In this document: one piece after another, positions 2,579 to 11,894 of the stretch
How positions within the stretch are numbered: position 1 is the first letter of the stretch
How the letters are laid out: each line of letters starts with the position of its first letter
From: Mycobacterium sp.
GTDB lineage: Bacteria > Actinomycetota > Actinomycetes > Mycobacteriales > Mycobacteriaceae
Length of the DNA stretch: 13,603 nucleotides
Assembly (NCBI GenBank): GCA_023264755.1
Contig: JAHFVB010000004.1
Location: 13,998-27,600 of the forward strand
Reading direction: 5' to 3'
Made by a program: the position numbers and the translations under genes
Notes under the pieces: generated by a model
Seen by the model: only the letters and a program-made list of their open reading frames with translations
Database searches by the model: none
Told to the model about the DNA's origin: nothing

Positions 2579-2950
2579 ATGATCCACATCTCTCGCAGCC
2601 GCGTAGCCCTGCTGAGTGTCGGCGCGACGGCGGTCATCGGCGCGACCGTCCTCGTTGCCCTGCCCGGGCAGGCAGCTAGCGCCGACGACTGCACGGCCAG
2701 CGTTTTGGCGCACACCGTATCAGGCGTCACGGGCAACGTCGCCAGCTACCTCGATGCCCACCCGGACGTGAACGCCGCGTTCACGGACATGAAAGGCCAA
2801 TCCAGACAACAGATGCGAGTCAGCGCCGAACGCTACCTGGCCGCGAACCCCACGGTCCGATCCGACCTTCAGTCGATCCGGGCACCACTGACTGACCTCG
2901 CTCAACGCTGCGGGGTGAGTATCCCCGCCGGCGGAATTCTCGGGGGGTGA
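2579..2950 (+). CDS. Secreted haemophore haem-binding (MHB) family protein
   Basis: This is a 123-residue exported protein resembling the mycobacterial haemophore haem-binding domain, the family of M. tuberculosis Rv0203. ATG 2579 follows the strong site AAGGAGGA (2567-2574). Residues 1-35 form a signal peptide ending ASA before DDC. The mature protein has a cysteine right after cleavage and another in the C-terminal QRCG. Between them lies the helical pattern typical of the family: a YLDAHPDVNAAFTD segment, a KGQ turn, YLAANPTVRSDL, then IRAPLTDLAQRC. Rv0203 binds haem outside the cell; haem binding here is inferred from family likeness. Its stop is 7 nt before the histidine kinase start, so the two genes are very probably cotranscribed. 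The protein might be the kinase's target, or a ligand or modulator of its sensing. Confidence 0.75.
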   Translation: MIHISRSRVALLSVGATAVIGATVLVALPGQAASADDCTASVLAHTVSGVTGNVASYLDAHPDVNAAFTDMKGQSRQQMRVSAERYLAANPTVRSDLQSIRAPLTDLAQRCGVSIPAGGILGG

Positions 2951-2957
2951 ACGTGGG

Positions 2958-4136
2958 ATGACACTCTGGACCCGATCCACGATCCGCACCCGCTTGACGG
3001 TGCTGTATGCGAGTGCCTTCTTCGTGGCTGGAGCCATCTTGGTCGCGTTGATGTACTTCTATTTGGAGCAGTCGTTAGACCACAGCCCCGAAGGGACGGC
3101 GCTGGCCGCCGCGCGGAGCTTCCTCGAAGTGCGCGGCACCGGCAGTCACCCGCTCATCGACAGCGCCGTCACAGCGCTGGCCCAGCGGGCTGATCAGCAA
3201 CGGCACGAAACACTGCGGACGATGTTGGTGTTCTCGCTGGCCTCCCTCGGCGGGATCGGGATGGCTGCGGGCGTCTTCGGCTGGCTCCTGGCGGGGCGCG
3301 TCCTGCAGCCGCTGCACGAGATGACAGCGACCGCACGCCGCATCGCCGATCACAATCTCCACGAGCGCATCTCGTTGACGGGCCCCTCCGACGAGATCAA
3401 AGAACTCGCCGACACCTTCGACGCCATGCTGGAGCGGCTAGACCTTGCTTTCGACGGTCACCACCGCTTCGTCGCCAATGCCTCACATGAGCTGCGTACG
3501 CCGCTGGCCATCAATCGCACGCTGATCGAAGTCGCCCTCGAAGACCCGACGGTATCGGACTCGACCAGACAGCTGGGCGAGACACTGCTGGCTGTCAACC
3601 GCCGGCACGCGCGGCTCATCGATGGACTACTGGTGCTGGCCAGCAGCGAACAGAGCATCGACAAGCACACCCGCACGGATCTTTCGGTCATTGCCAACCG
3701 GGTGCTGACCAGCGCCGAGGACAGAGCCAGGGAAGCGGGCGTGCGCCTGTCGTCCCGGCTCGCCTCGGCGCCGGTGACCGGCGATACGGTGTTGTTGGAG
3801 CGACTGCTGGGCAATCTCGTCGATAACGCCCTGCGGTACAACATTTCTGAAGGCGGGTGGGTGCACGTGATGGTCACCGGGGACGTCAGAATGGCCAAGA
3901 TGACAGTGCAGAACACGGGACCTGTGGTGCCTCCCGCCGAAGTCGACGGCCTCTTCGAGCGGTTCCGCAGGCTCCCAGGCGACGAACACCTCAAAGACCA
4001 GCATTCCTCGATCGGCGGAGCGGGTCTCGGCCTGTCCATCGTCCGGTCGGTGGCGAACGCACACGGAGGGCGGGTCCGTGCGAGCGCCCACCCGCAAGGC
4101 GGGCTCACCGTCGAGGTGACGTTGTCGGCCACTTGA
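2958..4136 (+). CDS. Membrane sensor histidine kinase
   Basis: This 392-residue two-component sensor kinase has the full set of modules. Residues 1-13 are basic and cytoplasmic, 14-36 are the first membrane helix, and about 37-87 are a short extracytoplasmic loop. Residues 88-112 are the second helix, 113-165 a HAMP linker, and the H-box FVANASHELRTP carries phospho-acceptor His177. The ATP-binding domain shows an N-box (LLGNLVDNALRYN, Asn286 and Asn290), an F-box near 333 and a glycine box GGAGLGLSIV near 353-362. All key residues for autophosphorylation are present. It starts 7 nt after the MHB-like gene with only a weak GTGGG site, so translation is probably coupled. No response regulator gene lies next to it, which is unusual because mycobacterial kinases are normally paired with one. 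The signal is unknown. Confidence 0.9.
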   Translation: MTLWTRSTIRTRLTVLYASAFFVAGAILVALMYFYLEQSLDHSPEGTALAAARSFLEVRGTGSHPLIDSAVTALAQRADQQRHETLRTMLVFSLASLGGIGMAAGVFGWLLAGRVLQPLHEMTATARRIADHNLHERISLTGPSDEIKELADTFDAMLERLDLAFDGHHRFVANASHELRTPLAINRTLIEVALEDPTVSDSTRQLGETLLAVNRRHARLIDGLLVLASSEQSIDKHTRTDLSVIANRVLTSAEDRAREAGVRLSSRLASAPVTGDTVLLERLLGNLVDNALRYNISEGGWVHVMVTGDVRMAKMTVQNTGPVVPPAEVDGLFERFRRLPGDEHLKDQHSSIGGAGLGLSIVRSVANAHGGRVRASAHPQGGLTVEVTLSAT

Positions 4137-4259: not shown

Positions 4260-4988
4260 TCAGCCCGGCTGACGGCCGTTCACCCGCAGCGCGAGTGCCA
4301 CGTCGTCGAACTGAGCTGCCTGGGCACTCACGCGCGTGATGTCACTCGGTCGCTTCAACAGGCTCCGCACGGCGATGACGGCCACCTGCTCGGCCACCCG
4401 GATGGCCTCCTGCGCGCGGTCCACCTCGTCGGTATGGAGTCGCGTCCGCTTCTGCGCGCCCTCGTCGAAGTTCAGCAGCAGCCCCGCCGTCTCGTCCTTA
4501 TCGCACTCGACGAACCGGCCCTCGCTGATCGCGGCTGCGATGAGGTCCGCGACCCACTGCTTGAGCCGTTCGTAGTCGGTCCAGAACTGACCGAAATCAC
4601 TGCGCTGGGCGTGCGCGATTCGCTGGATCTCGTTGAAGTCGATCGGGGACAGCGCCAGCTGAAGGGTGTCGAAGCGGAGCAGCCGGTACAGCTTGACCGC
4701 GGGCGAGCCGGAGCCCGCCCCCACCGCCGCGATGAAGTCCAGCGGCGCTCGGTTGACCAGCAACGTTTCCTGAAGCAGGCCTTCCTTGTTGCGGAACCAG
4801 TAGTAGAGCGACGACTGTTGCAGCCCGCAGGCGCGCGCAATGTCGCTCATCGTGGTCTGCGCATAGCCCTTCTCGGAGAACAGCTTGGTCGCCGCATTGA
4901 TGATGCGCGCCCGCGGGGAATCGCTCTGTCCCGGATCGGCTTCCTGTGACGGCACGCCCCGAATGGTACGACGCGCACCGAGCGCCAC
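4260..4988 (-). CDS. TetR/AcrR-family regulator, last gene of the catabolic operon
   Basis: This is a 242-residue transcriptional regulator of TetR type. Residues 28-76 form the conserved N-terminal DNA-binding domain, with a helix-turn-helix around TMSDIARACGLQQSSLYYWFRNKEGLL (about 46-71). The C-terminal helical part, which should bind the effector and mediate dimerisation, is not like any specific subfamily I know. The chosen GTG start at 4988 overlaps the TAG stop of the creatininase gene by one base (TAGTG), suggesting coupled translation; an alternative GTG at 4955 would remove 11 residues. Neither has a strong ribosome binding site. As the last gene of the operon it most likely represses its own operon and is released by the pathway substrate or an intermediate. 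The inverted repeat CGTCAC-N7-GTGACG upstream of the permease is a candidate site. Confidence 0.88.
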   Translation of the reverse strand: MALGARRTIRGVPSQEADPGQSDSPRARIINAATKLFSEKGYAQTTMSDIARACGLQQSSLYYWFRNKEGLLQETLLVNRAPLDFIAAVGAGSGSPAVKLYRLLRFDTLQLALSPIDFNEIQRIAHAQRSDFGQFWTDYERLKQWVADLIAAAISEGRFVECDKDETAGLLLNFDEGAQKRTRLHTDEVDRAQEAIRVAEQVAVIAVRSLLKRPSDITRVSAQAAQFDDVALALRVNGRQPG

Positions 4989-5749
4989 TACCGCGTCAAT
5001 GGCGGTACCTCGTCGTGTGCGCGCGACACCAGCTCACGTGCGGCGGTTACCACGTCGGTCCAGAGCTCGAGTCCGAACGCCTTGGAGGCCCTGGAGGGGT
5101 GACCGGTGACGCCGTTGGTGGACACGTGCTGCACCGGGTAGCGGAAGACCACGCCGGCCGTGCGATCTGGATCGTCGGCCTCGCGCATCCGCTCGACGTC
5201 GACCAGTTCGGGTCGTAGCACCATCATCAACGACGTCTCGGCGGCGTTGGCGTGCCAGTCGACGGCATCGGCGGTGGCGCGGCGTGCGATGTCAGGCGTC
5301 AAGTCCCACCACTGCATGACCCCTACCCCACTGTCGGGGAACCGCCGCCGGAAGTTGTCGCAGGCGATCCACAGTGGGGCGGCGTTGCCGACGTGCCCGT
5401 TGACGAACAGCACCCGCCGGGCGCCGGATTCGGCGCAGGCAGCGGCCGTCCGGTAGGCCGCACCAGCGGTCTCCTCACCCGTGCAGGCGATGGTGCCGGC
5501 GAGCTCGGTGCCGTGGAACTGACTGGCACCAAAGGCCAATGGGGGCAGCACCAGGGCGGACTCCCCCGCGGCTGCGTCGGCGAGCGCCGCGGCGACGATG
5601 GTGTCGGTTCCGACTGGCAGGTGCGGCCCATGCTGCTCGGTAGCACCAACCGGGATCAGCACGACCGTCTCGGGGTCCGCAGCAAACCGTTTGGATAGTT
5701 GCGGCGAGGTCAGTTCGGCCCAATGGTGGCTTCCACTACCGTGATTCAA
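4988..5749 (-). CDS. Creatininase-family metal-dependent amidohydrolase
   Basis: The 253-residue product belongs to the creatininase fold, metal enzymes that cleave C-N bonds in cyclic or linear amides (creatinine amidohydrolase, formamide hydrolases, MftE). The metal-site motif IPVGATEQHGPHLPVGTDT gives Glu38, His40 and Asp49. The usual NGHGGN segment reads NGHVGN (117-122). HANAAETS (166-173) carries the conserved His and Glu, and GVTGHPS near the end is the family's C-terminal turn. The start is inferred as TTG 5749, which overlaps the dehydrogenase TGA as TTGA; it gives the family's usual length, while the open frame extends 63 codons further into dehydrogenase sequence without family likeness. 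In this operon its natural task would be hydrolysis of an amide, perhaps a gamma-glutamyl amide made by the ligase two genes upstream. Substrate specificity cannot be read from the sequence. Confidence 0.83.
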   Translation of the reverse strand: MNHGSGSHHWAELTSPQLSKRFAADPETVVLIPVGATEQHGPHLPVGTDTIVAAALADAAAGESALVLPPLAFGASQFHGTELAGTIACTGEETAGAAYRTAAACAESGARRVLFVNGHVGNAAPLWIACDNFRRRFPDSGVGVMQWWDLTPDIARRATADAVDWHANAAETSLMMVLRPELVDVERMREADDPDRTAGVVFRYPVQHVSTNGVTGHPSRASKAFGLELWTDVVTAARELVSRAHDEVPPLTR

Positions 5750-6525
5750 TGCAACGTCACCCCCGCGTTGACACGAATCGATTGTCCCGTCACGCTTCCG
5801 GCGGACGAGCTGGCCAACCAAGCGACGGCGTCCCCGATGTCTTCCGGAGTACACAGCGCCCCGGTCAGCGTCTCGGCCGTGACCGCAGCGCGGAGCTGGT
5901 CGATCGGGGTCTGGGTGAGGGCCGATTCGGCTGCCCACTTGTCCAGCACCATGTCGGTCTCGATGATGCCCGGGCAGACGGTGTTGACGGTGATCCCGCG
6001 ACGCCCCAACTCGATTGCCGCCACCTGCCCCAGCCCGATCTGTGCGAACTTCGACGGGGCGTAGGCGCCGTACAGCGGCCAGGCACGAATACCGGCCTCG
6101 GAGGAGATGTTGACGATCCGACCGCCCGCGTCACCCATGGCGGCGGCTGCGCTCTGGATGCCGTAGAACGTCCCCATCAAGTTGATCTCGAAGCACCGCC
6201 TGACCTGTTCGCCGGAGAGCTCGAGGATCGACCCGGCCGCCATGTACCCCGCATTGTTGACCCAGCAATCCAGCCGGCCGAACTCCTCGAGTGCGGCCTT
6301 GGCGAGCTCCTTGGAGGTCTGCTCCTCGGACACGTCACCCTGGACCAGGGTGGTGCGCGCCGAGGTGGTGTCGTCGATCACCGCCGCGGTCTTGACCGCG
6401 GCGGCTTGATCCGAGGTCCAGCCGATGACGACGTCGAATCCGTGGTGTGCAAGCGCCTTGCTGATGCCGGCGCCGATACCGCGCCCACCACCGGTGACGA
6501 CCGCGACGGGAGTGCCGGCCGCCAT
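5746..6525 (-). CDS. Short-chain dehydrogenase/reductase
   Basis: This 259-residue classical SDR is an NAD(P)-dependent oxidoreductase acting on an alcohol, diol or carbonyl. The dinucleotide-binding motif TGGGRGIG is at 11-18, NNAG at 90-93, the structural Asn at 115, the catalytic Ser at 142 and the YxxxK pair Tyr155/Lys159. There is no acidic residue at the end of the second beta strand (IGWTSD), so a preference for NAD cannot be claimed. ATG 6525 overlaps the ligase TGA by one base (TGATG), and the 3' end overlaps the creatininase start by 4 bases, so all three should be translated as a coupled block. Following a Rieske oxygenase, such an enzyme usually oxidises the hydroxylated or diol product; that role is an inference from position. 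Confidence 0.88.
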   Translation of the reverse strand: MAAGTPVAVVTGGGRGIGAGISKALAHHGFDVVIGWTSDQAAAVKTAAVIDDTTSARTTLVQGDVSEEQTSKELAKAALEEFGRLDCWVNNAGYMAAGSILELSGEQVRRCFEINLMGTFYGIQSAAAAMGDAGGRIVNISSEAGIRAWPLYGAYAPSKFAQIGLGQVAAIELGRRGITVNTVCPGIIETDMVLDKWAAESALTQTPIDQLRAAVTAETLTGALCTPEDIGDAVAWLASSSAGSVTGQSIRVNAGVTLH

Positions 6526-7910
6526 CAGAAGAACCTGAGGTAGCGGTCGGTTTCCCAGGCCGACACGTGGGCGGTGTAGGAGTCCCACTCCAGCCGCTTC
6601 TCCGAGACGAACGAGTCGAACATCGCCTCGCCGAACACCTTACGGGCCAACGGGTCGGCTTCGAGGGCGTCGAGCGCAGTGTCCAACGACCTCGGCAACC
6701 AACCGATTCCACGCTCGGCCAGATCCTCCTCCGACAGCCGGTACAGGTTGTCACGGTTGGGCTCCCCCGGGTTCAATCCCTCTCGGATGCCCTCCAGACC
6801 CGCCGCCAGCATGAGCGCCGCACCCAGATAGGGGTTGTTCGCGCTGTCGGCGGCCCGGCACTCCACCCGACCACCGCCGCGCGGGATGCGAAGCATGTTG
6901 GTCCGGTTGTTGTCTCCGTAGCAGGCGAAGATGGGCGCCCAGGTGAGCCCGGACATGCTGCCCTGCTTGACCAATCGCTTGTAGCTGTTCACGGTGGGCG
7001 CGATCACCGCACAGATCGCCGGGGCATGCCGGAGCACCCCCGCGATGAACTGGTAACCAAGCGTCGACAGGCCGCAGTTGCGCGGATCGTCGGTCGCCTC
7101 GAAGAGGTTGGCGCCATCCTCGCCGGCCAGCGACATGTTGTAGTGCGCACCGCTGCCGGTGCGGTCGGCGAACGGCTTGGGCATCCAGGACGCGAACAGT
7201 CCATGCTTGCGGGCGAGCTCCCCGACCATCATCCGGAAGAACGTGAAGCGATCCGACATCGACACCGCATCGGTGTAGGTGAAGTCGGTCTCGAACTGGC
7301 CGTTTCCGTCCTCGTGGTCGAAGGAGTAGACGTCCCAGCCGAGTTCGTTCATGGCCGAGACGATTTCATCGACCACCGGGTAGTTGTGCAGCAGCCCGCG
7401 CAGGTCGTAGCAGGGCTTGTCCAGATCGTCGTCGAGGCTGGCCGGGGCCGGCGTGCCCACCCGGTCGTCGGTCAGCAGAAAGAACTCGGTCTCGATGCCC
7501 AGGTTGAAGGTGTAGCCCAACGCCGCGGCCTCGGCGGTGACCCGCTTGAGGATCTGGCGGCTGCACGCCTCGAATGGCGTGTCCCCGATCCACAGGTCTC
7601 CGGGGAACCACGCGACCTCGCGGTTGAACGGCGTGATGATGGCCGCATCCAGGTCCGGATGCGGGGCCACCTCGTCGTCGTTGACGTCCTGTGGCACGCC
7701 ATCCAGCGCTGCGCCGGTGAACATCTCCGATCCCTTCGCCGCTTGCACCAGATGGTTAAGGGGCACCATCTTCGCCTTCGGCTTGCCGTGCATGTCGACG
7801 AAGCTGATGGCCGCGTACTTGACTCCCGACTTGGCGAGCCGGTCCGCGACCTCGAGCGCCTTGGTGGCGATGGCCGACTGGGTGCCCTGTCCGTTCAACA
7901 CCGTGGTCAT
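6525..7910 (-). CDS. GlnT/type III glutamine-synthetase-like ligase (probable gamma-glutamylamide synthetase)
   Basis: The 461-residue protein has the whole glutamine synthetase fold. It has the N-terminal beta-grasp part (about 30-115), metal-binding GIETEFFL (Glu140, Glu142), NGQFETDF (Glu207), the GSGAHYNMS loop with His256 (252-260), and ATP/glutamate-binding NRTNMLRIP (335-343) and RVECRAAD (348-355). The sequence style matches the GlnT/type III group, which includes gamma-glutamylmethylamide synthetases, rather than housekeeping GlnA: there is no adenylylation-site region typical of GlnA. The expected reaction is ATP-dependent joining of glutamate to an amine. ATG 7910 has an AGGAAGG site, and the stop of the Rieske gene lies 13 nt before. 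Within this operon it probably activates or detoxifies the imported amine, as glutamylanilide synthetase does in aniline degradation. An ammonia-assimilating role remains possible. Confidence 0.87.
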   Translation of the reverse strand: MTTVLNGQGTQSAIATKALEVADRLAKSGVKYAAISFVDMHGKPKAKMVPLNHLVQAAKGSEMFTGAALDGVPQDVNDDEVAPHPDLDAAIITPFNREVAWFPGDLWIGDTPFEACSRQILKRVTAEAAALGYTFNLGIETEFFLLTDDRVGTPAPASLDDDLDKPCYDLRGLLHNYPVVDEIVSAMNELGWDVYSFDHEDGNGQFETDFTYTDAVSMSDRFTFFRMMVGELARKHGLFASWMPKPFADRTGSGAHYNMSLAGEDGANLFEATDDPRNCGLSTLGYQFIAGVLRHAPAICAVIAPTVNSYKRLVKQGSMSGLTWAPIFACYGDNNRTNMLRIPRGGGRVECRAADSANNPYLGAALMLAAGLEGIREGLNPGEPNRDNLYRLSEEDLAERGIGWLPRSLDTALDALEADPLARKVFGEAMFDSFVSEKRLEWDSYTAHVSAWETDRYLRFF

Positions 7911-7923
7911 GTGATGCCCCTTC

Positions 7924-9087
7924 CTATCCCGTGGATGCGAGCTTGGCCGAGTTGCCGATGAGTCCGAGTTCTCGGCCCAGGTATCGATAGAACTCCCACA
8001 ACGGACGTTCCAGGTGTGACAACCGACCGACGCCGGTGACTCCGGAGTTGATCGCACGTTGTACCGACGCGCACACGTCGAGGTCCTCGCGGTGGATGTC
8101 GCAGATCGACTTGACGAGCTGGTTGCGCCGCTCCTCGAGTTCGGGCGCGGCCAGGGCCGCAGGCGACATCGCGATGTCGAGGTGGACCTCGATGCGTCCG
8201 GCGCCCAGGGGCAGCACCTTGAGCCAGTACATGAACCCGGGCCCCAGTGACACCTGCAGTAGCGGGTAGGCGATGAAGATGAGCAGCTTGTGGGCGTGCT
8301 CCGGCGTCAGGGTGTCCGCTCCTGGGGCGAGGAACGGTTCTGCCGCAGGGTATCCCGGGGCCTGTGCCGACCACATGGTGGTGAAGTAGTCCCCGACCTC
8401 GCCGGTGGAACTCAGGTGGGCGGGGAACTCCGATTCGAGGGACTGCCGGTGCGGCCCCATGTGGTGGTAGCACTCCATGAAGTTGTCCACCATGATCTTC
8501 CAGTCCCAGTCGCACTCACCCCACTCGGTGTGTTCGACGGTCTGGTAGTTCTCGAAGTCGTACGGGTCGACTTGGGCGGACAACCCGGCGAGTTGTTCGG
8601 CCAGCGGGGTGGCTAGCCCGTCCATGTTGACGAAGACGAATCCCTTCCACAGCTCGTGCCGAAACTGCTTGAGTCCATAGTCGGCGCGGTTGAAACCGTT
8701 GGACTGCTTCATCTCCGGCGCGCCGGCCAGGTGTCCGTCGAGGCCGAAGGACCACAGATGGTAGGGACATTGCAGCACCTTGGCCTCACCCGCTCCGCTG
8801 CAGATCTCCATCCACCGGTGCGTGCAGTTGCGCGACAGCACCCGAACTTCCGAGTGCCGGTCGCGAGTCACGACCAGCGGCGTGCCCAGGATGTCGATGC
8901 TGTAGTAGCTGCCGTCGGTGGGGAGCTGCTCGATACGGCACAACGGGATCCAGCCGTGTCGGAAGACGCGATCCACCTCATCGGCATAGAGGGCGTCGCT
9001 GCCGTATGCATCCGGCGGAAGGGTGATGGCGTGTGCGGGTGAGTCGACGGCACAGGTGGCTGCCATCCGCGAGTAGTCGAAGACCAC
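7924..9087 (-). CDS. Rieske non-haem iron oxygenase, alpha subunit
   Basis: This 387-residue terminal oxygenase subunit has an N-terminal Rieske domain with Cys88-x-His90 and Cys107-x2-His110 for the [2Fe-2S] cluster. The catalytic domain contains DNFMECYHHMGPH, giving iron ligands His206 and His211 and Glu203 at the position that bridges cluster and iron. A Glu there is known from carnitine monooxygenase CntA, whereas naphthalene-type enzymes have Asp. A later EDLD near the C-terminus may supply the carboxylate ligand. The GTG start at 9087 is preceded by AAGGAG six bases upstream, 31 nt after the permease stop; the open frame extends 43 codons further as low-complexity sequence overlapping the permease gene. 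No beta subunit, ferredoxin or reductase is encoded in the window, so the enzyme is probably a homo-oligomer using partners from elsewhere. Likely reactions are hydroxylation or oxidative N-dealkylation. Confidence 0.9.
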   Translation of the reverse strand: MVFDYSRMAATCAVDSPAHAITLPPDAYGSDALYADEVDRVFRHGWIPLCRIEQLPTDGSYYSIDILGTPLVVTRDRHSEVRVLSRNCTHRWMEICSGAGEAKVLQCPYHLWSFGLDGHLAGAPEMKQSNGFNRADYGLKQFRHELWKGFVFVNMDGLATPLAEQLAGLSAQVDPYDFENYQTVEHTEWGECDWDWKIMVDNFMECYHHMGPHRQSLESEFPAHLSSTGEVGDYFTTMWSAQAPGYPAAEPFLAPGADTLTPEHAHKLLIFIAYPLLQVSLGPGFMYWLKVLPLGAGRIEVHLDIAMSPAALAAPELEERRNQLVKSICDIHREDLDVCASVQRAINSGVTGVGRLSHLERPLWEFYRYLGRELGLIGNSAKLASTG

Positions 9088-9118
9088 GAGATTCTCCTTG
9101 GGGGTGAAGTGGTGGGGC

Positions 9119-10522
9119 TTAGGCGGCCGTGGGAGCCGGCACGCTCGCGTCGGTGGTGGCGACGAGCTCGCCGATGCCGACCGGCGCCTTGCGGTTGAGT
9201 GCGTAGTGCAGCCCACCTGCGACGAATAGTCCTACCAGCCAGGCGATGTCGACGCCCCCGAGTGCAGTGGCGAACGGTCCGACGAACAGCGGGCAGCTCA
9301 TGAAGGGCACCTCGGCGAGGACCGCGATGGCGTAGGCACCGATCGACTTCCAGTTCACCAGTCCGTAGCGACCACGCATCGACAGAATGCTTCCGACGTC
9401 GTAGCGGCCGTGATGGATGACGTAGAAGTCGACGAGGTTGATCGCCGTCCATGGCACCAGCATGTAGAGCAGGAACAGAATGAGATTGGAGAGATTGGTC
9501 AGGAAGTCGCCGGAGAGGAAGATGCCGATGGCCGTCCCGATCAGCGCGAAGGCGCCCGTAACGCAACCGCGCACCAACCGCGACACGTGCGGCGGTCCCC
9601 CAGCTTGGGTCACCGTCGAGAGCCCAGCCAGGTACGGGCCGTACAGATTGTCGCAGTTGGCGCCGATCATGCCGAGCACGAGCACGATCGCGACGACCGG
9701 GGCGCCCACCGGGGCGAGACTGGACAGGTAGACGAGGGCGTCGGTGTTGAGGCTGTCCAGTGCGTACACGCCCACGACCGCACCGAGCGCCATGAACAGC
9801 ATGGCGCCGGAACAGCTACCGATCAGGGTGTACCAGAACGTCTTCGCGCCGCCCTGCTCTGTCGGCAGGTAGCGCGAGTAGTCCGAGACGTAGGGCGCGA
9901 ACGTGATCTGCCAGCTGGCACAAATGGACAAGATGAGGAAGAAGTTCGCGAACGTAGGCTGGGACGCGGCTGCGGGCGCGGTTCCGTAGTGGGCCACTGC
10001 GGCCACGAACAGCAGTACTAGTACGACGACCGAGACGAGTGCCATCGCACGGTCGAACAGATGGATGGCGCGGTACCCCGCGAACGCGATGAGCCAGGTG
10101 ACGACGTTGCAGACGACGATGCCGGTCCAGGTGGGGATTCCGGCAATGCTCGCAATCGCCTGGCCGCCGATGACGCCGGCACCGGCGAAGTAGCCCACGT
10201 ACATGATGATGGCCAGCAGATTGGGCAGTGCAGCGCCGACGAATCCGAATTGCGCTCGGCTCTGGATCATTTGGGGTAGGCCCAACTGGGGCCCTTGCGC
10301 CGAGTGATAGGCCATGAAGATCGCACCGACCAGGTTGCCGAGCACGATCGCCAGCAGCGTCGGCCCCAGGCCTGCGCCGACGGAGATGCCGATGGCTCCC
10401 GTCGTGGCCGCCATCACGGTCGCGTTGAGGGAGAACCACAGCGGGAGTAGGTGCCAGGCCTTGCCGTGGCGTTCGTCTTCCGGGATTGCACCGATGGTGC
10501 GTTGTTCGATGAGTGTTGCCAT
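9119..10522 (-). CDS. NCS1-family nucleobase/hydantoin-type permease
   Basis: This 467-residue integral membrane transporter of the nucleobase:cation symporter-1 family (cytosine, purine, allantoin, hydantoin and related compounds) has about twelve hydrophobic segments spread over residues 30-450. Typical features are the N-terminal RTIGAIPEDERHGKAWHLLPLWF entrance, SLNATVMAATTG in the first helix, a PQMIQSRAQFG loop, and APYVSDYSRYLP in the middle, the latter very characteristic of CodB-like permeases. ATG 10522 has AGGAA 6 nt upstream, and a 26-codon in-frame extension lies in the leader. It is the first gene of the operon, so its product most likely brings in the compound the following enzymes act on, possibly a small N-heterocycle or amine. 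The family alone does not fix the substrate. Confidence 0.88.
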   Translation of the reverse strand: MATLIEQRTIGAIPEDERHGKAWHLLPLWFSLNATVMAATTGAIGISVGAGLGPTLLAIVLGNLVGAIFMAYHSAQGPQLGLPQMIQSRAQFGFVGAALPNLLAIIMYVGYFAGAGVIGGQAIASIAGIPTWTGIVVCNVVTWLIAFAGYRAIHLFDRAMALVSVVVLVLLFVAAVAHYGTAPAAASQPTFANFFLILSICASWQITFAPYVSDYSRYLPTEQGGAKTFWYTLIGSCSGAMLFMALGAVVGVYALDSLNTDALVYLSSLAPVGAPVVAIVLVLGMIGANCDNLYGPYLAGLSTVTQAGGPPHVSRLVRGCVTGAFALIGTAIGIFLSGDFLTNLSNLILFLLYMLVPWTAINLVDFYVIHHGRYDVGSILSMRGRYGLVNWKSIGAYAIAVLAEVPFMSCPLFVGPFATALGGVDIAWLVGLFVAGGLHYALNRKAPVGIGELVATTDASVPAPTAA

Positions 10523-10607: not shown

Positions 10608-10649
10608 AGCCCGGTCTGTTGCTGTGTTGTTTCACCGTGATGAATGCCT

Positions 10650-10730
10650 TATTGAGACATCCGGATCCAGTTCCGCCATCTATGTCCCGCTCAACTGGGC
10701 ATTTGAGCAACCATCTCAATAGGTTATTGA
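10650..10730. promoter_or_regulatory. Cluster of TATTGA/TTGAG inverted repeats in the divergent region
   Basis: TATTGAGA (10650-10657) and TCTCAATA (10714-10721) form an 8-bp inverted repeat. GCTCAA (10689-10694) and TTGAGC (10703-10708) form another inside it. TCAATA-ggt-TATTGA (10716-10730) is a perfect 15-nt palindrome. The sites lie between the operon and the divergent hydrolase-LuxR gene and could bind a regulator controlling either side. Confidence 0.4.
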
Positions 10731-10837
10731 CAGACTCGCCGCGAGATTGACTCTGCGCACCGGGCGTCTGGCACCGGCCGGTTCCGCACTAGGGGCCGGC
10801 CCTGCCGATTGCCCGTCCCCCCACTGCCGACACGTCG

Positions 10838-10843
10838 TACGCT
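10838..10843 (+). promoter_or_regulatory. -10 hexamer for a leaderless start of the hydrolase-LuxR gene
   Basis: TACGCT fits TANNNT and ends 7 nt before ATG 10851, the spacing expected if transcription begins at the start codon itself. No ribosome binding site precedes this ATG, which agrees with leaderless translation, common in mycobacteria. Confidence 0.5.
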
Positions 10844-10850
10844 GACTCCG

Positions 10851-11894
10851 ATGCTCGACAAGGCCGAGATCCGCTTCCTGCCGCTTGGCGCCCGCCGCCT
10901 GGCCTACGAAGTGCGCGGAGCTGGGCCCCCGCTGGTCGTTCCGGCGTGGTGGGTGAGCCACCTCGAACTCGACTGGCAGAGCCCGAACATCCGGCGGTTC
11001 TGGGAGGGCGTCGCGCACGACTACACCCTGATCCGCTACGACCGGCTCGGCGTCGGCATGTCTGACCGCACCCTGGAAGCGTCCGACCTGACGCTGGACG
11101 GCGAGGTCGCCGTCCTACGCGCGCTGCTCGTGGAACTCGACCTCGATCGGGTGTCACTTCTGGGTGGGTCATCCGGGAGCTGTACCGCCATGGCGTTCGC
11201 CGCGGCGTTTCCAGAGCAGGTCGAGCGCCTGGTGCTCTATGGGGCGTTCGCCCAGGGCGACGCACTCACCGCTCCTGGGGTGGCAGACGCGATCGTCGCT
11301 GCGGTACAAGCACATTGGGGACTCGGGTCGCGCCTGCTCGGCGACATCTTCCTGGGGGGTGTCGATGCCGAGGAGCAGGAGCGCTTCGCACGGCTACAGC
11401 GGGACTCGGCCAGCGCGGAGACCGCCGCCGCCCTGCTGCGGCTGGTCTACCGGCTCGACGCCCGCGACCGCCTTCCCCTCGTCCGCCAGCCGACGCTGGT
11501 CGTGCATCGGCGCGACGACCGGGCCGTGCCGTACCAGCTCGGCCGGGAAGTCGCAGCCGCGATACCCGGGGCGACATTCGTTCCGCTGCAGGGCAGCTCG
11601 CACTTCCCGTGGTACGGCGACGTCGATTCGATCGTTCGCGCATGCCGTCAAGTGCTGGCGCCGCCGCAGTCAGCTCCGGAGGAAGCGAGCGTGCTCGAAC
11701 CGATACTGCTGTCACCTCGCGAGCGCGAGGTGCTCGCCCAGGTGGCACGCGGTCTCGGCGATCGCGAGATCGCCGAGCAACTGGTGCTCAGCCCGCACAC
11801 CGTTCACCGCCACGTCGCGAACATTCGCCGCAAGCTCGGTAGCCCTTCTCGCACGGCCGCCGTCGCCGAAGCCGCGCGGCTCGGATTGTTGTGA
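10851..11894 (+). CDS. Alpha/beta hydrolase fused to a LuxR-type DNA-binding domain
   Basis: The 347-residue protein joins two domains. Residues 1-270 are an alpha/beta hydrolase: an early WW-containing loop near 33, YDRLGVGMSDR (63-73), the nucleophile elbow GGSSG with Ser107, an Asp pair at about 222-223 and the catalytic-type His at about 251 in GSSHF. Residues 287-347 are a LuxR/GerE helix-turn-helix starting LSPREREVL and containing the recognition part LVLSPHTVHRHVANIRRKL. An intact triad suggests that the hydrolase domain is active or at least still binds a small ligand, so the protein may be a one-component regulator sensing an ester, lactone or hydrophobic compound. ATG 10851 is chosen over an upstream TTG (10809) because of the leaderless promoter and because domain homology starts there. 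It is divergent from the catabolic operon, a common position for a second regulator. Confidence 0.85.
   Translation: MLDKAEIRFLPLGARRLAYEVRGAGPPLVVPAWWVSHLELDWQSPNIRRFWEGVAHDYTLIRYDRLGVGMSDRTLEASDLTLDGEVAVLRALLVELDLDRVSLLGGSSGSCTAMAFAAAFPEQVERLVLYGAFAQGDALTAPGVADAIVAAVQAHWGLGSRLLGDIFLGGVDAEEQERFARLQRDSASAETAAALLRLVYRLDARDRLPLVRQPTLVVHRRDDRAVPYQLGREVAAAIPGATFVPLQGSSHFPWYGDVDSIVRACRQVLAPPQSAPEEASVLEPILLSPREREVLAQVARGLGDREIAEQLVLSPHTVHRHVANIRRKLGSPSRTAAVAEAARLGLL

What the first reader, a model, noticed from the sequence alone, without database searches (positions are those of the whole stretch)
4260..10522. Six-gene operon that may glutamylate, oxygenate and then deamidate an imported amine
Seen: NCS1-type permease, Rieske oxygenase, GlnT-like ligase, SDR, creatininase-family amidohydrolase and TetR in one direction, with gaps of 31 and 13 nt and then three overlapping junctions. 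Known: in aniline degradation a glutamine-synthetase-like enzyme makes gamma-glutamylanilide, a glutamine-amidotransferase-like enzyme hydrolyses it, and a Rieske dioxygenase acts on the ring; GlnT relatives make gamma-glutamylmethylamide. Inference: here a creatininase-fold enzyme replaces the usual glutamyl-amide hydrolase and the permease supplies an N-containing substrate. The combination is not one I recognise as a characterised pathway.
Basis: partly seen in the sequence, partly recalled or inferred. Interest (0 to 1): 0.72.

Follow-up and report, generated by a model that had tools for sequence, protein, structure and literature searches.

The report
Mycobacterial amine-glutamylation operon with optional oxygenase
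A soil-mycobacterium operon carries an enzyme that probably attaches the amino acid glutamate to some small amine, paired with an amide-splitting enzyme and its own regulator; half of the related operons examined lack the oxygenase seen here, so the proposed three-step pathway is only partly right and the target compound is still unknown.

Summary
The six genes, coordinates and junctions are real. Of 396 genomes of the genus, 44 carry this ligase. Of those 44 neighbourhoods, 43 have the TetR gene and 42 the creatininase-family hydrolase, but only 22 the Rieske oxygenase, 7 the permease, 4 the SDR and 2 all six. The constant unit is ligase + amidohydrolase + TetR. A palindrome, TCAATANNNTATTGA, occurs exactly once in the window's genome, just upstream of the operon, and within one mismatch at the operon in 19 of 20 other carriers: a likely dedicated TetR operator. 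The ligase keeps the catalytic residues of gamma-glutamylmethylamide synthetase and lacks the two ammonia residues of glutamine synthetase, but three positions in or near the amine site differ in 45 of 45 members; the methylamine genes lie elsewhere in the same genomes. So it probably glutamylates another amine. The oxygenase has group V (quaternary-amine) marks; the hydrolase lacks creatininase Glu122. Glutamylation is well supported; 'oxygenate, then deamidate' is not, since ligase and hydrolase stay under purifying selection without the oxygenase. Substrate and step order are open. New variant of a known kind.

The parts
9119..10522 (-). NCS1-type permease (accessory, 7 of 44 carriers)
   Evidence: PF02133 180 bits; below TIGR00800 cut-off, 129 of 353; presence counted
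7924..9087 (-). Rieske oxygenase alpha subunit, group V-like (accessory, 22 of 44 carriers); motif DNFMECYHHMGPH
   Evidence: PF00355+PF00848; best solved relative CntA; F203/E205/C206/H209 in CntA numbering
6525..7910 (-). GlnT-like amine:glutamate ligase (core)
   Evidence: TIGR03105 560 bits; best solved relative 9qur, glutamate-methylamine ligase; residue tables
5746..6525 (-). SDR oxidoreductase (accessory, 4 of 44 carriers, each also with Rieske)
   Evidence: PF13561 183 bits
4988..5755 (-). Creatininase-family metal amidohydrolase (core, 42 of 44 carriers); NGHVGN motif
4260..4988 (-). TetR-family regulator (core, 43 of 44 carriers)
   Evidence: PF00440 64 bits
10716..10730 (.). Exact palindrome TCAATAGGTTATTGA, putative main TetR operator, 194 bp upstream of the permease start
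   Evidence: only exact copy in the 4.75 Mb own assembly; conserved upstream of the operon in relatives
10641..10655 (.). Second, degenerate copy (2 mismatches) 75 bp nearer the operon
   Evidence: three other genomes show a second site 66-77 bp away

Best explanation
A TetR-controlled module for using a nitrogen compound, built round two enzymes. The creatininase-family enzyme hydrolyses an amide or cyclic amide and so frees an amine; the GlnT-like ligase joins that amine, with ATP, to the gamma-carboxyl of glutamate, giving a gamma-glutamylamide that enters glutamate metabolism, possibly through the N-methylglutamate-synthase genes found elsewhere in most carriers. In the window's larger edition an NCS1 permease imports the compound, a group V Rieske monooxygenase oxidises a carbon next to its nitrogen (for example removing an N-alkyl group) and an SDR oxidises a resulting alcohol. 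SHOWN here: gene content, core versus accessory genes, conserved palindrome, ligase residues, separate methylamine gene cluster. INFERRED: amine rather than ammonia as acceptor (from residues), TetR binding to the palindrome, hydrolase acting before the ligase, and every substrate.
For: Ligase: in 45 of 45 operon members (44 genomes plus L018) the catalytic, Mg-site and amine-site residues Lys30, Glu122, Glu124, Tyr147, Asp177, Glu179, Glu186, His235, Trp300, Arg312 and Glu325 are kept; the GS residues for ammonia are absent (position 300 Trp, position 48 Thr); A48, Q175 and N188 of RhGmaS read T, S and D (roles read in passages of PMC7948447). Six plasmid GmaS keep A, Q, N; the gmaS of the same mycobacteria reads A, A, N in 3 of 3 copies that cover all three positions. 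Core: 42 of 44 have ligase + hydrolase, 22 of 44 Rieske; ligase, hydrolase and TetR of seven Rieske-less pairs have dN/dS 0.05-0.14, so the pair is kept without the oxygenase. Palindrome. Partial precedent for a hydrolase upstream of the ligase: a Terrarubrum plasmid carries a creatininase that keeps Glu122 about 12 kb from gmaS and mgsABC-type genes; that creatinine breakdown can yield methylamine is recalled. mgsB occurs in 41 of 44 carriers and 120 of 352 others.
Against: No substrate is known. In 1 of 44 (G598) the hydrolase is missing while ligase, Rieske and SDR remain. The ligase-oxygenase systems I know put their hydrolase after or beside the ligase, not before it. An unrelated control gene, nitrile hydratase alpha, is also enriched in carriers (44 of 44 against 242 of 352), so the mgsB link is partly lifestyle or descent; among control-positive genomes it is 41 of 44 against 111 of 242. 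Gene order puts the hydrolase after the ligase. The hydrolase lacks creatininase Glu122, so lactam hydrolysis cannot be assumed.
Confidence: 0.38

Rival explanations
1. Ipu-like route: GlnT glutamylates the amine, the Rieske enzyme (or an unlinked oxygenase where it is missing) oxidises the glutamylated amine, and the creatininase-family enzyme removes the glutamate.
For: The isopropylamine route of Pseudomonas KIE171 runs permease, gamma-glutamylamide synthetase, monooxygenase, hydrolase (recalled; paper not held; PMC11335346 cites the study). In the aniline and 1-naphthylamine systems a ligase, a GAT-like hydrolase and a Rieske enzyme are encoded together (PMC11335346, passages). The outgroup locus L018 has permease, two Rieske genes, ligase and hydrolase, so the oxygenase may be ancestral. 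SDR and permease occur only in loci with Rieske (4 of 4 and 7 of 7).
Against: 22 of 44 carriers lack the Rieske gene yet keep ligase and hydrolase under purifying selection; ligase then hydrolase alone would be futile. No gamma-glutamyl hydrolase activity is known to me for the creatininase fold. The palindrome marks no likely second oxygenase operon (5 of the 14 off-operon sites were looked at).
Confidence: 0.34
2. Buffering or detoxification pair: GlnT traps a toxic amine as gamma-glutamylamide and the hydrolase keeps the pool in check, as the GAT-like enzyme does for gamma-glutamylanilide; the Rieske enzyme is an optional exit.
For: PMC11335346 describes the GAT-like enzyme as hydrolysing gamma-glutamylanilide to keep it at a proper level (passage). 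A ligase-hydrolase pair without oxygenase is what half the carriers have.
Against: A stand-alone ATP-consuming cycle conserved in 22 genomes needs a purpose that was not found; no exporter is part of the core.
Confidence: 0.15
3. The ligase is a second methylamine (or ammonia) ligase and the operon is an ordinary supplement to nitrogen assimilation.
For: It passes the TIGR03105 'type III glutamate--ammonia ligase' cut-off and its best solved relative is a glutamate-methylamine ligase.
Against: The same genomes already have gmaS-mgsABC (4 of 4 regions opened; mgsB in 41 of 44 carriers); three amine-site or loop positions differ in 45 of 45 members; the GS ammonia residues are absent.
Confidence: 0.08

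Closest known systems
Isopropylamine (ipu) pathway of Pseudomonas sp. KIE171 (recalled)
   Same: gamma-glutamylamide synthetase, monooxygenase, hydrolase and permease encoded together
   Different: there a multi-component monooxygenase and a different hydrolase; here a group V-like Rieske alpha subunit and a creatininase-family enzyme, and half the carriers have no oxygenase gene in the operon
Aniline (atdA1-A5) and 1-naphthylamine (npaA1-A5) systems
   Same: GS-like ligase + hydrolase + Rieske oxygenase (PMC11335346, passages)
   Different: there a GAT-like hydrolase, a two-component aromatic dioxygenase and a linked reductase; none of these is in the operon
N-methylglutamate pathway (gmaS-mgsABC)
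   Same: ligase of the same family with the same catalytic residues
   Different: no mgsABC in the operon; changed amine site; the NMG cluster is a separate locus in the same genomes
Group V Rieske oxygenases (CntA, choline monooxygenases, OxyBAC; GbcA, Stc2)
   Same: bridging Glu205, aromatic residue at 203 (Phe as in OxyBAC), Cys206
   Different: Cys209 replaced by His; no linked reductase; GbcA model scored 115 of 670 bits
Creatininase and MftE
   Different: Glu122 replaced by Gly; below both family cut-offs

Membership tests
GmaS / N-methylglutamate pathway | catalytic Asp177, Glu186, Arg312, and Trp300 in place of the GS Glu | tested here: met
   roles from PMC7948447 (passages)
GmaS / N-methylglutamate pathway | methylamine-site residues Gln175 and Asn188, and Ala48 | tested here: not met
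   Ser, Asp and Thr in 45 of 45. Gln175 is Ala in mycobacterial gmaS too, so Asn188 and Ala48 are the cleaner marks
GmaS / N-methylglutamate pathway | mgsABC in the same cluster | tested here: not met
   mgsB lies elsewhere in 5 of 5 genomes, with gmaS, mgsA and mgsC in 4 of 4 opened
Type III glutamate--ammonia ligase (TIGR03105) | model cut-off | tested here: met
   560.1 of 469.6 bits
Type III glutamate--ammonia ligase (TIGR03105) | ammonia as substrate | not testable with these tools
   the GS ammonium-binding Asp and catalytic Glu are absent, which argues against it
Group V Rieske oxygenase | bridging Glu205 and aromatic residue 203 (clade Va) | tested here: met
   Glu and Phe in 25 of 25 orthologue rows, some genomes twice; roles from PMC7948474 (passages)
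Group V Rieske oxygenase | Cys206-X-X-Cys209 pair (some members only) | tested here: not met
   Cys206 kept, His at 209 (PMC10952381, passages)
Group V Rieske oxygenase | oxidises a quaternary ammonium substrate | not testable with these tools
   needs enzyme assay
Creatininase | fold | tested here: met
Creatininase | metal ligands E34, H36, D45, H120 and E122 (ligand roles recalled) | tested here: not met
   first four kept, E122 is Gly in 20 of 20 operon-family rows, one genome twice; GHVGN in 43 of 43
Creatininase | TIGR04448 cut-off | tested here: not met
   116.5 of 235 bits
MftE peptidase | TIGR03964 cut-off | tested here: not met
   118 of 172 bits
Glutamylate-oxygenate-deglutamylate pathway (ipu/atd type) | ligase, oxygenase and hydrolase genes in one unit | tested here: met
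   met in the window and 19 other genomes of 44; not met in the 22 Rieske-less carriers and G598; G069 cut
Glutamylate-oxygenate-deglutamylate pathway (ipu/atd type) | hydrolase acts on the oxidised gamma-glutamylamide | not testable with these tools
   needs assay
NCS1 transporter | PF02133 and TIGR00800 cut-offs | tested here: inconclusive
   Pfam met (180 of 23.5), TIGR00800 not (129 of 353)

The most novel reading that the evidence does not exclude
An undescribed mycobacterial route for an amine other than ammonia or methylamine, in which a creatininase-fold enzyme is the dedicated (de)amidase of a GmaS-type ligase, and a group V-like Rieske oxygenase with His in place of Cys209 is present in some lineages to act on the amine or its glutamyl conjugate.
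Probability: 0.45. Interest if true: 0.6.

Novelty: new variant of a known kind. Interest (0 to 1): 0.43.

Why it matters
If right, it adds a ligase of changed amine specificity to a family whose gene gmaS serves as a marker for methylamine users, and would show that database names mislabel it as a glutamate-ammonia ligase. It would also give the creatininase fold a new partner and job, and it offers a natural experiment: the same operon with and without its oxygenase in related species, under a putative operator that can be tested directly.

Tried and rejected
Ring dioxygenase reading of the Rieske gene: the best solved chains are CntA (next come biphenyl and benzene dioxygenases, more weakly), and the bridging residue is Glu with Phe at 203. 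Mycofactocin link: the hydrolase is below the MftE cut-off and the SDR below the mycofactocin-coupled SDR cut-off (157 of 300). Plasmid relatives: in 5 annotated ligase regions glutamate-synthase-type genes adjoin the ligase and none has the other operon genes beside it (the Terrarubrum one has a creatininase 12 kb away); a sixth, L036, has no annotation. One plasmid locus of a 32% Rieske relative was opened and shows no ligase gene. Operator regulon in trans: 14 off-operon sites within one mismatch in 20 genomes against 7 for the reversed-pattern control (forward counts); 5 were opened, 4 inside predicted ORFs and 1 upstream of a 570-aa ORF: read as mostly background. Permease model unusable, pLDDT 33. 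No promoter-like or terminator-like site upstream. Rfam: no match. The Rieske motif script read 79 of 120 search hits, all with F203, E205 and H209, 11 of them without Cys206; the other 41 did not fit the pattern and were not examined. Papers: 10 searches of an open-licence library listed no description of this gene set; I saw listings and abstracts, and passages of five papers (the last, on molinate degradation, was of no use). I can say no more about the literature.
Full report
Observation. Family scans agree with the names given. The window is part of a 4.75 Mb, 70%-complete assembly. Of 20 loci found in named genomes with the Rieske protein, 19 are Mycobacterium or Mycolicibacterium; the other, L018, is an Actinomycetes assembly at 64% identity. 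The Rieske orthologue is uncommon: 5 of 148 genomes of the genus and 1 of 296 of the phylum, the window's own included in both counts.

What is constant. Searching 396 genomes of the genus with the ligase found 44 carriers. I classified all 44 neighbourhoods (on the window, stretches, and one short locus): TetR 43, creatininase family 42, Rieske 22, permease 7, SDR 4. The full six-gene set is in the window and G054 only. G069 was judged from a 2.7 kb stretch that ends after the ligase; G598 lacks the hydrolase. In 37 of 44 the divergent neighbour is an RNase Z-like gene, so the operon mostly sits at one chromosomal site; it was not found in the other 7, window and G054 among them. In the 20 Rieske-less loci where the distance was measured, 144-400 bp separate that neighbour from the ligase, which leaves no room for another oxygenase there. 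Permease and SDR occur only where Rieske does (7 of 7, hypergeometric 0.004; 4 of 4, 0.054, descent not corrected). On the ligase tree Rieske absence needs 6 changes, at least 2 of them forced by well-supported branches (the outgroup branches are long and the root is unsure). L018 has permease, Rieske, ligase, a second Rieske and hydrolase, which hints that the oxygenase is ancestral.

The pair lives without the oxygenase. Ligase, hydrolase and TetR of seven Rieske-less pairs have dN/dS of 0.05-0.14, like the three pairs with Rieske (0.06-0.13, apart from one hydrolase pair at 0.25 with very few changes). The catalytic and amine-site residues checked are the same in both groups.

Ligase. The structural study of RhGmaS (PMC7948447; passages read) assigns Asp177, Glu186 and Arg312 to catalysis. 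It names Tyr147, Gln175, Asp177, Glu179, Glu186, Asn188 and Lys30' as the presumed methylamine site, and notes that Trp300 and Ala48 stand where glutamine synthetase has its catalytic Glu and ammonium-binding Asp. In 45 of 45 operon members Lys30, Tyr147, Asp177, Glu179, Glu186, Trp300 and Arg312 are kept, while Ala48, Gln175 and Asn188 read Thr, Ser and Asp. Six plasmid relatives keep Ala, Gln, Asn; five of them have glutamate-synthase-type (mgsABC) neighbours annotated, and the sixth record carries no annotation there. The gmaS of the same mycobacteria reads Ala, Ala, Asn in 3 of 3 copies that cover all three positions (G042, G054, G065), and Ala, Asn at 175 and 188 in the copy of the window's genome, which is cut by a contig end. 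So position 175 also drifts in true gmaS, and 48 and 188 are the cleaner marks. Of the 120 listed database hits of the ligase (of 6565 matches), 119 read Thr, Ser, Asp and the last, a fragment without position 48, Ser and Asp; they reach down to 66% identity and include a Burkholderiales assembly. Four contig lengths are shared between 14 Rieske and 12 ligase hits compared outside the close mycobacterial range, consistent with linkage there. My inference is an amine other than ammonia or methylamine.

Oxygenase. The best solved chains are carnitine monooxygenase CntA (E 3e-33). CntA Glu205 bridges the two iron centres, and aromatic residue 203 marks clade Va, with Phe in the benzalkonium enzyme (PMC7948474; passages read). 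All 25 orthologue rows (some genomes twice) read DNFMECYHH, that is Phe203, Glu205, Cys206 and His at 209. Cys209 of CntA, whose mutation strongly lowers activity there (PMC10952381; passages), is missing. No reductase gene is in the operon. These marks argue for oxidation next to a nitrogen, not for ring dihydroxylation.

Regulation. A search for exact palindromes in 23 upstream regions returned TCAATA-3-TATTGA in 14, whichever gene is first (two genomes are represented twice). In the window's assembly it occurs once, at 10716-10730. Within one mismatch it lies at the operon in 19 of 20 other carriers, ten Rieske-less ones included; G581 has none. A second, weaker copy lies 66-77 bp away in the window and three other genomes. 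With up to 3 mismatches the window alone would give two matches in 15 of 200 shuffles, so the weight rests on the exact site and its conservation. That the TetR product binds it is inference.

Methylamine pathway elsewhere. All five genomes tested hold an mgsB gene away from the operon, with gmaS, mgsA and mgsC in 4 of 4 regions opened. In the 396-genome sample mgsB is in 41 of 44 carriers and 120 of 352 others (Fisher 1e-14, descent not corrected). A control gene, nitrile hydratase alpha, is enriched too (44 of 44 against 242 of 352; Fisher 3.5e-7). Among control-positive genomes mgsB is in 41 of 44 carriers and 111 of 242 others. Part of the link is therefore lifestyle or descent.

Mechanism. 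But if the hydrolase undid the ligase's own product, the 22 Rieske-less operons would spend ATP for nothing unless an unlinked oxygenase steps in. I therefore slightly favour the hydrolase acting first, freeing an amine that the ligase captures, with permease, oxygenase and SDR widening what can enter. A partial precedent is the Terrarubrum plasmid where a creatininase with Glu122 lies about 12 kb from gmaS and mgsABC-type genes. The two orders are close (0.38 against 0.34) and one hydrolase assay would decide.

Verdict. A real, probably self-regulated module that my paper searches did not find described; a new variant of known amine-glutamylation systems.

Noticed in passing
L018:6217-7335: A second Rieske oxygenase (42% identical to the window's) sits between ligase and creatininase-family gene in an Actinomycetes assembly.
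   Followed up: partly
L001:10001-14080: Mycobacterium sp. NAZ190054 has Rieske-ligase-SDR-TetR with no creatininase-family gene found between SDR and TetR.
   Followed up: partly
L032:8083-21939: Terrarubrum flagellatum plasmid: creatininase, cytosine deaminase and an ABC transporter near gmaS and glutamate-synthase-type genes, perhaps a creatinine-to-methylamine region.
   Followed up: no
window 2579-4136 (+): Haem-binding MHB haemophore-family protein directly upstream of a HAMP sensor histidine kinase.
   Followed up: no
window 10809-11894 (+): Alpha/beta hydrolase fused to a LuxR-type DNA-binding domain, divergent from the operon.
   Followed up: no
L125:5901-5915: An exact copy of the operator-like palindrome upstream of a 570-aa ORF in G603, the only off-operon exact copy in the 20 genomes searched.
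   Followed up: partly
G018:C83:7457-8005: Nitrile hydratase alpha match with one internal TAG; the genome has four matches to the family.
   Followed up: no
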